This document shows positions 46,564 to 49,742 of a stretch of 64,000 nucleotides of DNA, in pieces (within the stretch, counting starts at the first letter, position 1; each line of letters starts with the position of its first letter). Source of the DNA: Deltaproteobacteria bacterium (GTDB lineage: Bacteria; Desulfobacterota; Binatia; UBA1149; JAJCZL01); NCBI GenBank assembly GCA_029262415.1, contig JAJCZL010000046.1, positions 1-64,000 of the forward strand. Reading direction: 5' to 3'. Below the pieces are notes generated by a model. It was not told the origin of the DNA. It worked only from the letters and a program-made list of their open reading frames with translations, and ran no database searches. The position numbers were made by a program, and so were the translations under genes.

Positions 46564-47136
46564 TCAGAAGTCGCGATCCATGACCGTTTTGCGCTCGTCT
46601 TCGCGGGCGCGAAGAATCGCGTTGTCGCACAACTTACGAACCTGCACCGAAAGCGCGGCCATCACGTTCTCCGACGTATTCATGCCCGAACGCGCACGAA
46701 TATAAGCCTTTAGCTTCGACGCAACGATCAAAATATCGTTCGGCAGGTCGTCACCGTTGAGCGTACCGAGCACCCCGACGCCGCTACGCTGCGCCCCTCC
46801 CCTAGGATTTGTCGCCGTGCCGCCCGCAGCCGACATCGAAGTACCGTCGGGCTTGCGGATTATAGCCGCCGGTGCCGCGGCCGAGCGCGGGGCAGACTCA
46901 CCACTTCCACCCTGCTTCGCGGCGGCCCATTCCTGAGCGCTCGGTGCGCGCTGCTGCTCAGCCCACGACTCGCGGTGGCGCATGGTCGGAACGTGCACCT
47001 CCCAGCAACTCACCGAGCAGAAGACAAACGCGTTGCCCTTACGGTTACAAGTCGAAACGCTGCAAGCGTAGTAGTCGGTACCGAACCCAAGATAGCGTTT
47101 GCAGGTACTACAGCGGCGCCAGAAGTTATCGTTCAT
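46564..47136 (-). CDS. Zinc-finger / histone-fold fusion protein
   Basis: 190 residues. The N-terminal 55 residues hold Cys9, Cys12, Cys25, Cys30, Cys40, Cys44 plus His48 and His54 (RRCSTCKRYLGFG, YYACSVSTCNRK, VFCSVSCWEVHVP), enough for two zinc sites. Residues 60-130 are an Ala/Gly/Ser/Pro-rich disordered linker. The last 58 residues read NDILIVASKLKAYIRARSG, MNTSENVMAALSVQVRKLCDNA, ILRAREDERKTVMDRDF. This is a complete histone fold: short helix, long central helix, then the R-K-T-V-x-x-x-D-F loop that contacts DNA in archaeal histones. It is probably a DNA-binding chromatin or regulatory protein. Unusual in a bacterium. Confidence 0.78.
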   Translation of the reverse strand: MNDNFWRRCSTCKRYLGFGTDYYACSVSTCNRKGNAFVFCSVSCWEVHVPTMRHRESWAEQQRAPSAQEWAAAKQGGSGESAPRSAAAPAAIIRKPDGTSMSAAGGTATNPRGGAQRSGVGVLGTLNGDDLPNDILIVASKLKAYIRARSGMNTSENVMAALSVQVRKLCDNAILRAREDERKTVMDRDF

Positions 47137-47144
47137 ATACCCGT

Positions 47145-47849
47145 CTACTCTTTAAGTTTGATGCGCAGGCTCCCGTCGCGCACTTCGAGAGCTTCTACCC
47201 CCGCGGCAAACGCTTTCCAAAGCCCTTCGTTGCCGCCGAACCTTTCGACAAGGTCGATGTTCTTGATCCCGCCTAACCATGCATTGGGGATCGGCACACC
47301 CATGATGCTCAAGCCTTTGAGCACGACTATCGGACGTCCGTTCGCGTAGGCCATTTCAACACCTGCGTTGAGACGCAACGTCTTGCCCCCCATGAACGGA
47401 AAGTCGGGATCCAGCGCGACCAGGAGCTTGGCACTGACTAGGTTGTCAGCAAGATCGATAGCGACCCGTTCGGCTAAGTCGGAGTTCCTCGCGACCAGGG
47501 CGTTCACCTCACGTTCGTTGAAGGTAATCTCACGCTCGGCATCTTCTTCGTTGTAGCGCTCCGGTTGCAGGCGCTCGCTGCCGAGCTGCGGTTGCGACCC
47601 CGGCGCGGCGCGAACCCCTTCACGTTTCTTAAACTCCGCGAAGCCCTCCAATCGGGTAAGCTTTTCTTCGAGCACGCGCTCTTCCCCTACACTCAGAGCG
47701 ACAGGCTTGAGCTTCGCAGGAAACACGTACGCACGCACGATCCAGACCGTCGCAAAGACCGTAGCAAGCATCGTTAAAGCGAGCATCCCGAACAGTTGCA
47801 GCCAACTGAAACGGCGGCCGCGGTCATGAGTATGGGTTGAATCGGTCAT
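47145..47849 (-). CDS. Membrane-anchored hypothetical protein
   Basis: 234 residues from MTDSTHTHDRGRRFSWLQ; the frame further upstream is unsupported. One N-terminal transmembrane helix (LFGMLALTMLATVFATVWIV), then a variable linker, and from about residue 110 a beta-rich domain: ITFNEREVNALVARNSDLAERVAIDLADN, LVSAKLLVALDPDFPFMGGKTLRLNAGVEMAYANGRPIVVLKG, then SLRIKLKE at the end. It looks like a periplasmic lipid-binding-type (AsmA/DUF-like) sheet domain, but I do not recognise the family. Eight bases after it (same strand) begins the next gene's stop region. Confidence 0.7.
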   Translation of the reverse strand: MTDSTHTHDRGRRFSWLQLFGMLALTMLATVFATVWIVRAYVFPAKLKPVALSVGEERVLEEKLTRLEGFAEFKKREGVRAAPGSQPQLGSERLQPERYNEEDAEREITFNEREVNALVARNSDLAERVAIDLADNLVSAKLLVALDPDFPFMGGKTLRLNAGVEMAYANGRPIVVLKGLSIMGVPIPNAWLGGIKNIDLVERFGGNEGLWKAFAAGVEALEVRDGSLRIKLKE

Positions 47850-47986
47850 CGACGTCTCCGGGGCGAGTTCTCCTACCTGCACGCGCAGCTGCCTGACCAG
47901 GCCGCGACCACGACACACCAGGTGTGATCTATTAGCGCACAAGCAGCCTCAGGCTCAAACGCCTGGGGCGCCGGCGGACGGAGTTG

Positions 47987-48586
47987 CTATATCCGGGCGC
48001 CTTTCGCCTGGTTGCAGGCGCGGCATAGCAGCTGAAGATTCTGCGCCGATGCGGCACCGCCGTGGGAGAGCGGGATAATGTGATCGAACTGAAGGTTTTG
48101 GCGCGCACCGCAACCTACGCAGGCTCCTTGGTCGCGCCGCCAGACCTCATGACGAATTGGTTCCGGAATCGGTGAGCGGGTACGGCGTTCAAAAGGAAGC
48201 GGCGCCTCGGGCGCGTCGAAGCATACCTCGAGCTCGAGCTTGGCTGACGCCGTCTTGTCGTGGACATCGCAGAGCGCCTCGAAGGCCTCCAGCATCGCCA
48301 ACGCGTCGCGCGCATCCGGCGTGCCCGCCGGAGCGCGCATGCGCTTGCCGCAGTGATCGCATTGGTAGTGGGCCGAGCGCACGTTGGGGCTGAGGTCGAG
48401 CAGCACCATCGCCGATTCGTGGCAGCGCGCGCAGGGCTGAATCAAAAAGTGTTGCTCGACAAACTCACCAAGGTCTTCCGCGCAGCGCTCGGCCCGACTG
48501 CGCAGGCGCGCAAGCCGTAGCCGGCGCCATAGGACGAAGGCGGGCACCATTAGTGCCGCGAGAAAACCCCATTGAAGTTCCGTCAC
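47987..48586 (-). CDS. Membrane-anchored HNH endonuclease-like protein
   Basis: 199 residues from a GTG with GAGAGAAG upstream. A single transmembrane helix starts the protein (LQWGFLAALMVPAFVLWRRLRL), followed by a zinc-ribbon-like region (CARCHESAMVLLDLSP, YQCDHCGKRM), a linker and an HNH domain at 145-199: RHEVWRRDQGACVGCGARQNLQFDHIIPLSHGG and NLQLLCRACNQAKG. All HNH metal and catalytic residues are present. A nuclease tethered to the membrane and facing the cytoplasm is uncommon; defence or uptake-DNA cleavage are possible roles but unproven. It differs from the HNH gene at the left end. Confidence 0.85.
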   Translation of the reverse strand: MTELQWGFLAALMVPAFVLWRRLRLARLRSRAERCAEDLGEFVEQHFLIQPCARCHESAMVLLDLSPNVRSAHYQCDHCGKRMRAPAGTPDARDALAMLEAFEALCDVHDKTASAKLELEVCFDAPEAPLPFERRTRSPIPEPIRHEVWRRDQGACVGCGARQNLQFDHIIPLSHGGAASAQNLQLLCRACNQAKGARI

Positions 48587-48638
48587 CTTGCTTCTCTCAG
48601 TTGGCGCAGCGCCCGCGCGGCCGGAGTCGGCTGACCGC

Positions 48639-49742
48639 TCAGAACGAGAGTATATTCCCCTGCGACGGCAACACGCGACCTTCGAGCGTTTCGCGGTAGA
48701 CGTGCTCGATAGACTTCTCACCCGAGCTCGCGGCGACCGTGATCCACTCGCGCGCTGGGCCGATCAGCCGGGCCCATGCTCCGCCTAGCCGTTGTTGCAG
48801 CGCATCCGCACCCCAGTCGGCCTCGCGCTTCTTGATCTGGTCGGGGGCGAAAAAGAACGTCGGTTGCGCGCCCGGTAGCGGCACCATCTCGCCGCCGTTT
48901 TCCCAGTGCGAAGCGCCGACCATCAGGCTGAATTTGAGGTTATCGGCGAAGTGGCTGTGTACCGCGGCGCGGACGTCTCCGTTTCCTGACATGTCGATAT
49001 AAACGCCGCCCTGCTCTATGGGTAAAGAGGCGATCTCGTCGTAGGTCACGGTCTTGTCGTAGCAACCAAGCGCTTCGACGAACTTACGGTTACCAGCCGA
49101 GGTCAGCCCGATAACATCGCATCCCGCGCCGCAAAGTTCATGCAGACAAAACGCCGCGCACAGCGCAGTCTTGCTCGATGCGCTGGAGAAAAGCACTTGC
49201 TTCGCACCGTAGTAGTCAGCGTCGGCGATCATATCGGCGATGAGAAAGCCCGTCATGAACAGCGGTCGAAGCAACGACTGCTGCGCTTCGCAGCCGACGT
49301 CGTAGCCGGGATCGGCGGCGGTGCGTAGGTAGTTGTTGTAGACCGGGTGCAAGGCCTTGCGATGCTCGGTGCCGTCGACGAAACCGGCAGCTGTCACCCT
49401 TGCCGGCTGCAAAACCAGATGCGTGGATAACGGCCAATAACCGTATAGGCGCTCCCCTACTTTAACGCCTTCGTGCTTGGAGGCGACAACGTCGGCAAAA
49501 CCCCAAACCGGGATTCGCCCCCACCCCTCGACGGCTGGAAAGAAGTTCCAATAGGCCATCTGTTCACCGAATACCGCATAGGTGATGTTGTTGGCGGTGA
49601 AAGCGAAGGTATCGACCTTCGCGAGAACCTCGCCGTCGGCCAGATCGGCTTGGGCGGGAACCGGCGCGGTCCGGAATTCACAGGTTCGAAGATCGTCTTT
49701 CTTTACGAGAAACTCGGTTGCGGTATCGGTTTGTACTGCCAT
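48639..49742 (-). CDS. DUF2855 family protein
   Basis: 367 residues. The whole length fits DUF2855, a distant relative of medium-chain dehydrogenase/reductases: VLAKVDTFAFTANNITYAVFG, YWNFFPAVEGWGRIPVWGFADVV, GERLYGYWPLSTHLVL, then VLFSSASSKTALCAAFCL (in place of the nucleotide-binding G-x-G-x-x-G) and GGVYIDMSGNGDVRAAVH. The reaction is unknown; a carbonyl or ketone reductase-like role is suspected from the fold. Confidence 0.9.
   Translation of the reverse strand: MAVQTDTATEFLVKKDDLRTCEFRTAPVPAQADLADGEVLAKVDTFAFTANNITYAVFGEQMAYWNFFPAVEGWGRIPVWGFADVVASKHEGVKVGERLYGYWPLSTHLVLQPARVTAAGFVDGTEHRKALHPVYNNYLRTAADPGYDVGCEAQQSLLRPLFMTGFLIADMIADADYYGAKQVLFSSASSKTALCAAFCLHELCGAGCDVIGLTSAGNRKFVEALGCYDKTVTYDEIASLPIEQGGVYIDMSGNGDVRAAVHSHFADNLKFSLMVGASHWENGGEMVPLPGAQPTFFFAPDQIKKREADWGADALQQRLGGAWARLIGPAREWITVAASSGEKSIEHVYRETLEGRVLPSQGNILSF

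What the first reader, a model, noticed from the sequence alone, without database searches (positions are those of the whole stretch)
46564..47136. Zinc-finger protein with a C-terminal histone fold
Eight Cys/His ligands in the first 55 residues and a complete histone fold in the last 58, ending in the R-K-T-V-M-D-R-D-F loop. Bacterial histone-fold proteins are few, and a zinc-finger fusion with a long disordered linker is an unusual architecture. It could act as a chromatin organiser or a sequence-specific regulator.
Basis: partly seen in the sequence, partly recalled or inferred. Interest (0 to 1): 0.78.

Follow-up and report, generated by a model that had tools for sequence, protein, structure and literature searches.

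The report
Bacterial zinc-finger histone ("ZZ histone")
The gene encodes a small bacterial protein with a zinc-binding domain at one end and a DNA-binding histone fold at the other; this kind of protein was described in 2024, so the find is a new member of a known kind, although relatives that keep the zinc finger but lose or double the histone are worth attention.

Summary
Confirmed. The 190-residue ORF at 46564-47136(-) has exactly eight Cys/His in residues 1-55 and an α3-truncated histone fold in residues 133-190, joined by a disordered linker. The histone part matches HBb of Bdellovibrio (phmmer 5.8e-7) and keeps or conservatively replaces 9 of the 10 residues reported to contact DNA in HBb. 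It is not new: Schwab et al. 2024 named this architecture "ZZ histone" (finger with C4 and C2H2 zinc sites, bacterial-dimer histone).

Relatives are common: 34 of 148 genomes of the window's class have the finger, and 86 of 282 sampled in another group. The window's genome has five HU/IHF hits and no other histone found. Most likely it binds and bends DNA as a dimer without sequence preference, while the finger recruits an unknown protein partner (inferred).

I did not find two observations in the papers read. (1) Where tested, the class has no second histone (0 of 30), against 19 of 50 in a sample mostly from outside it. (2) The finger also occurs without a histone (three intact cases and one decayed in the class, three in the other group) and with two tandem histones (three cases). 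The finger therefore looks like a separable functional part.

The parts
46564..47136 (-). ZZ-histone gene, 190 aa plus stop codon
   Evidence: ORF; homologues with the same two-domain order in the class and among other bacteria, mostly labelled Deltaproteobacteria, Myxococcota or Bdellovibrio-like
46942..47136 (-). N-terminal zinc finger, residues 1-65; presumed ligands C9 C12 C25 C30 C40 C44 H48 H54
   Evidence: Ligands invariant except C40 in 1 of 50 rows; model pLDDT 91.5; the highest Foldseek rows are ZZ domains, but weak (best E 0.21)
46741..46941 (-). Linker, residues 66-132: one predicted short helix (67-75), then disordered
   Evidence: pLDDT about 48-63 for residues 81-130; mean pairwise identity 0.14 over residues 76-130, against 0.60 for the finger and 0.61 for the histone
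46567..46740 (-). C-terminal α3-truncated histone fold, residues 133-190, ending RKTVMDRDF
   Evidence: phmmer to 8cmp/8fvx/9qt0, profile search, Foldseek, DNA-contact residues

Best explanation
It is a ZZ histone (α3-histone family). Shown by comparison: a zinc-finger domain with eight conserved ligands, a variable disordered linker, and a bacterial-dimer-type histone fold. Inferred: two chains pair through their histone folds, and the dimer grips and bends DNA at the backbone without reading sequence, as HBb does. The two fingers hang on flexible linkers of about 55 residues and bind an unknown protein partner, so the protein tethers or recruits something to bent DNA. It probably acts at low copy beside HU/IHF, not as the main DNA packer. 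The finger may be the more essential module, because some relatives keep it after losing the histone.
For: Histone homology to HBb and HLp. Of the 10 DNA-contact residues listed for HBb, 8 are identical and K16 is Arg; T8 is Ala. Same architecture as the published ZZ histones. Finger and histone are equally conserved and the linker is not. Finger-only relatives and finger plus two tandem histones show that the modules are separable. The tandem form fits a histone that works as a pair. Five HU/IHF-family hits lie in the same genome. No neighbouring gene is widely conserved over 81 loci, which fits a stand-alone protein.
Against: No experiment on any ZZ histone function was found in the passages read. 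T8 of HBb is not conserved. Similarity of the finger to known ZZ domains is weak: best Foldseek E 0.21, VIA-align Z under 5, and no Pfam finger family over its cut-off for the window protein. The published analysis says the peptide pocket of eukaryotic ZZ domains is not conserved, so the partner-binding role is a guess. The finger could itself bind DNA or RNA, or only stabilise the protein. A review states that both Bdellovibrio histones are essential, which sits badly with a minor role; but the Hocher passages seen describe deletion attempts for bd0055 only.
Confidence: 0.6

Rival explanations
1. A global nucleoid protein: an abundant bacterial histone that coats or compacts the chromosome, the finger being only a stabilising or dimer-supporting part.
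For: It is the only histone found in this genome. HBb, its closest studied relative, is abundant and essential (PMC11317129; PMC11390915).
Against: The ZZ histone of Bdellovibrio is weakly expressed. The window's genome has five HU/IHF hits. Only 34 of 148 genomes of the class keep the finger at all. Some lineages lose the histone but keep the finger.
Confidence: 0.2
2. A sequence-specific transcription regulator in which the finger reads DNA and the histone fold strengthens or bends the site.
For: Two potential nucleic-acid-binding modules lie in one chain. In three class genomes (G019, G024, G044) the finger is followed by a short Arg-rich tail where the histone would be.
Against: The top structural matches of the finger are peptide-binding ZZ domains, though weak. 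HBb has no sequence preference. Other finger-only relatives (G336, G268, G414) have hardly any tail.
Confidence: 0.15
3. The finger binds tails of other histones, as eukaryotic ZZ domains bind H3.
For: Weak fold likeness to HERC2 and p300 ZZ domains (PMC11390915).
Against: No second histone was found in 30 of 30 ZZ-histone genomes of the class. The authors themselves consider this unlikely.
Confidence: 0.04

Closest known systems
ZZ histones (α3 family), Schwab et al. 2024, example D0LYE7 of Haliangium ochraceum
   Same: N-terminal finger with C4 and C2H2 ligand sets, C-terminal bacterial-dimer-like histone; seven of the eight published profile positions equal the window's ligands with an offset of one
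   Different: One published cysteine position (C43 of the profile, C53 of D0LYE7) does not map onto a cysteine here; the window has C44, which would be 45. This may be a numbering slip and was not resolved. The paper's main text does not contain a word beginning 'Binat'.
HBb (Bd0055) of Bdellovibrio bacteriovorus, bacterial dimer histone
   Same: Histone fold about 41% identical, DNA-contact residues mostly kept
   Different: HBb has no zinc finger and no linker
Bd3044 of Bdellovibrio bacteriovorus
   Same: The second, longer, less abundant histone-fold protein there; taken here to be the ZZ histone (inference, the passages read do not equate them in words)
   Different: Not compared by sequence here
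HLp of Leptospira perolatii (face-to-face histone)
   Same: Histone fold, about 42% identity
   Different: Forms tetramers and wraps DNA (PMC12701072, title, abstract start and passages); no finger
Eukaryotic ZZ domains (p62, HERC2, p300) and other treble-clef fingers (MYND, FCS/FLZ)
   Same: The best, though weak, structural matches are ZZ domains; two zinc sites expected
   Different: Ligand spacing here is CxxC-x12-Cx4C-x9-Cx3C-x3-H-x5-H, which differs from eukaryotic ZZ domains as I recall them; Pfam's ZZ family was not listed for it

Membership tests
ZZ histone | N-terminal finger with eight Cys/His ligands (C4 plus C2H2) | tested here: met
   Eight ligands, 7 invariant and 1 in 49 of 50 rows. 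Zinc binding itself was not tested.
ZZ histone | Finger is structurally a ZZ domain | tested here: inconclusive
   Top nine Foldseek rows are ZZ domains, but E 0.21 or worse; VIA-align Z at most 4.5 with mixed folds; Pfam finds no finger family over cut-off for the window protein
ZZ histone | C-terminal bacterial-dimer-like α3 histone fold | tested here: met
α3 histones | Truncated α3 helix of 3-4 residues and RxTxxxxD motif | tested here: met
   Model has helix 187-189 only; R182, T184, D189 present, R and T invariant in 50 of 50 rows, D in 49 with 1 gap
Bacterial dimer histones | Homodimer that binds and bends DNA | not testable with these tools
   No dimer prediction or assay was possible; 9 of 10 HBb DNA-contact residues kept or conservatively replaced
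Pfam PF00808 (archaeal histone/NF-Y) | Score over the curated cut-off | tested here: not met
   No hit for the whole protein nor for its histone part; 9 of 16 rows of the histone alignment show PF00808 at E up to 1, best 3.2e-4

The most novel reading that the evidence does not exclude
The finger, not the histone, is the functional core of this family: a bacterial adaptor domain that recruits a conserved cell component, with the histone as an exchangeable DNA-binding handle that lineages drop, replace by an Arg-rich tail, or duplicate in tandem.
Probability: 0.35. Interest if true: 0.55.

Novelty: new member of a known kind. Interest (0 to 1): 0.33.

Why it matters
As a ZZ histone it adds a member from a class whose closest labelled relatives include Candidatus Binatota genomes, and where it was the only histone found in all 30 carriers detected. 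That makes such genomes a clean place to ask what a ZZ histone does without other histones. The natural series of finger alone, finger plus one histone and finger plus two histones gives a ready design for separating the roles of the two domains, which I did not see done in the papers read.

Tried and rejected
Conserved gene neighbourhood: none found. Over 81 loci (80 plus the window) the two largest ORF clusters (44 and 34 loci) lie on the opposite strand over the gene itself (my reading of their positions), and the rest are shared by at most 15 loci, several of them by one sub-group. The window's neighbours (a 265-aa ORF without Pfam hit, an HNH protein) are found in no relative's locus; TypA homologues lie in 3 loci (HNH and TypA named). 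A partner could not be named this way.

Second histone in the window's genome: the whole protein, PF00808 and the histone profile give only this gene or sub-threshold noise. PF00808 failed to find even this gene, so it is a poor probe; the A4 profile found 19 multi-histone genomes of 50 elsewhere and is the better one.

Pfam, NCBIfam and a profile search of the PDB for the finger gave nothing over a curated cut-off or significant for the window protein; the best Pfam match among 30 finger rows was zf-FLZ at 0.0015. VIA-align of the finger gave only low Z values with mixed folds. Paper searches for 'Binatota' with 'histone' returned 0 papers; searches for ZZ or zinc-finger histones returned no paper on ZZ-histone function beyond Schwab 2024 (listings read).

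Finger-only cases not counted as clear: G282 and G373 (contig ends close after the finger), G051 (degenerate, C44 lost), and second divergent fingers in G242 and G276. In G263 the histone lies in another frame, so a frameshift, not a loss.

Full report
What is there. The ORF 46564-47136 on the minus strand encodes 190 residues. Residues 1-55 contain exactly eight Cys/His. The C-terminal 56-58 residues match bacterial histones: HBb of Bdellovibrio (8cmp E=5.8e-7; 8fvx 6.2e-7) and HLp of Leptospira (9qt0 5.6e-6) by phmmer. A 16-row histone profile, which itself contains the HBb and HLp stretches as rows and so matches them partly by construction, reaches 1.3e-25 and 6.5e-24 and also finds histones not in it (9f2c 1.8e-10, 8bdk 1.7e-5).

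Structure. AlphaFold2 with a 50-row alignment gives high confidence for the finger and the histone (most ten-residue blocks 92-97) and about 50 for the linker. Helices 139-150 and 157-179 and a three-residue helix 187-189 are the α3-truncated histone fold. Foldseek puts HBb, HLp and Thermococcus HTkC first (TM to target 0.83-0.95). The finger alone (pLDDT 91.5) has nine ZZ-domain rows at the top of its Foldseek list, but with E-values of 0.21 and worse. VIA-align Z is at most 4.5 with mixed folds. I therefore treat 'ZZ-type' as the published name, compatible with but not proven by my tests.

Conservation. Over 50 aligned relatives the ligands are invariant except C40 (49 of 50). Mean pairwise identity is 0.60 in the finger, 0.14 in the linker and 0.61 in the histone. 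Of the ten residues listed for DNA contact in HBb (PMC11317129, passages), eight are identical in the window protein, K16 is Arg and T8 is Ala. This is far more than chance would give.

Known kind. Schwab et al. 2024 (PMC11390915; [quoted passage not shown] They report about half of the ZZ-histone proteomes with a second histone, low expression in Bdellovibrio, and no conserved peptide pocket. The window protein fits. Hocher et al. 2023 (PMC10627809; passages) describe Bd3044 as the longer, second Bdellovibrio histone.

Distribution. In the window's class the finger profile finds 34 of 148 genomes. The histone profile, run on 98 of these 148, finds 30, one match each; on comparing the tables each lies on the same contig beside the finger. 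So no second histone was detected in those 30. In 50 genomes reached through loci (50 of the 80 loci given; three, L037, L038 and L085, repeat class genomes by coordinates) 19 have two or more histone matches. Two relatives in the same order carry the labels UBP10_UBA1149 and Candidatus Binatota (loci L032 and L036, matched to G008 and G011 by coordinates or sequence), so the window probably belongs to Candidatus Binatota (inference).

Finger without histone. Four class genomes, all in one family (f11), have the finger and no histone match: G019, G024, G044 and G051. G019, G024 and G044 encode finger-only proteins (93 and 96 aa for the first two, similar for the third) ending in Arg-rich tails. 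G051 is degenerate. In a finger-domain tree of 74 distinct sequences these four group together next to a finger-plus-histone protein of the same family, G031 (about 65 residues, no support values examined). In the phylum group around G162, 86 of 282 genomes have the finger and 96 of 282 the histone, both in 81. In that group only about 21-22 first-look candidates per genome were scored, so counts are lower bounds. Five genomes have finger without histone: G336, G268 and G414 are clear (no histone found in the downstream sequence in any frame, though G414 has under 400 bases left), G282 and G373 stop at contig ends.

Finger with two histones. G409, G308 and G299 encode one finger followed by two tandem histone domains in one open frame. 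This was not mentioned in the passages I read on ZZ histones or in a paper on double histone folds (PMC13088155; zero occurrences of 'zinc').

Mechanism. Shown: the two conserved modules, the unconserved linker and their natural separability. Inferred: dimerisation, DNA bending without sequence preference, zinc binding and partner recruitment by the finger. The window's genome has five HU/IHF-family hits, so the protein is unlikely to be the sole DNA packer. No conserved neighbour gene points to a partner.

Verdict. The small new part is the separable finger and the single-histone status in this class.

Noticed in passing
L117, L119, L120 (G044, G019, G024): Finger-only relatives with Arg-rich C-terminal tails and no histone found in the genome by the A4 profile.
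   Followed up: partly
L192, L193, L194 (G409, G308, G299): One finger followed by two tandem histone folds in a single protein.
   Followed up: partly
L186, L187 (G276, G242): Second, divergent finger-only genes in genomes that also have a finger-histone gene.
   Followed up: no
L085: A record titled Klebsiella pneumoniae MAG carries this gene at the same coordinates as G028 of the window's class; the title looks like a mislabel.
   Followed up: no
47145-47942 (-) and 47987-48721 (-): A 265-aa ORF without Pfam hit ends 8 bases before the histone gene, preceded by an HNH-domain protein; neither is found near relatives' genes.
   Followed up: partly
PMC11318664: The review says deletion of both Bdellovibrio histone genes is lethal; the passages of the cited study seen describe attempts on bd0055 only.
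   Followed up: no
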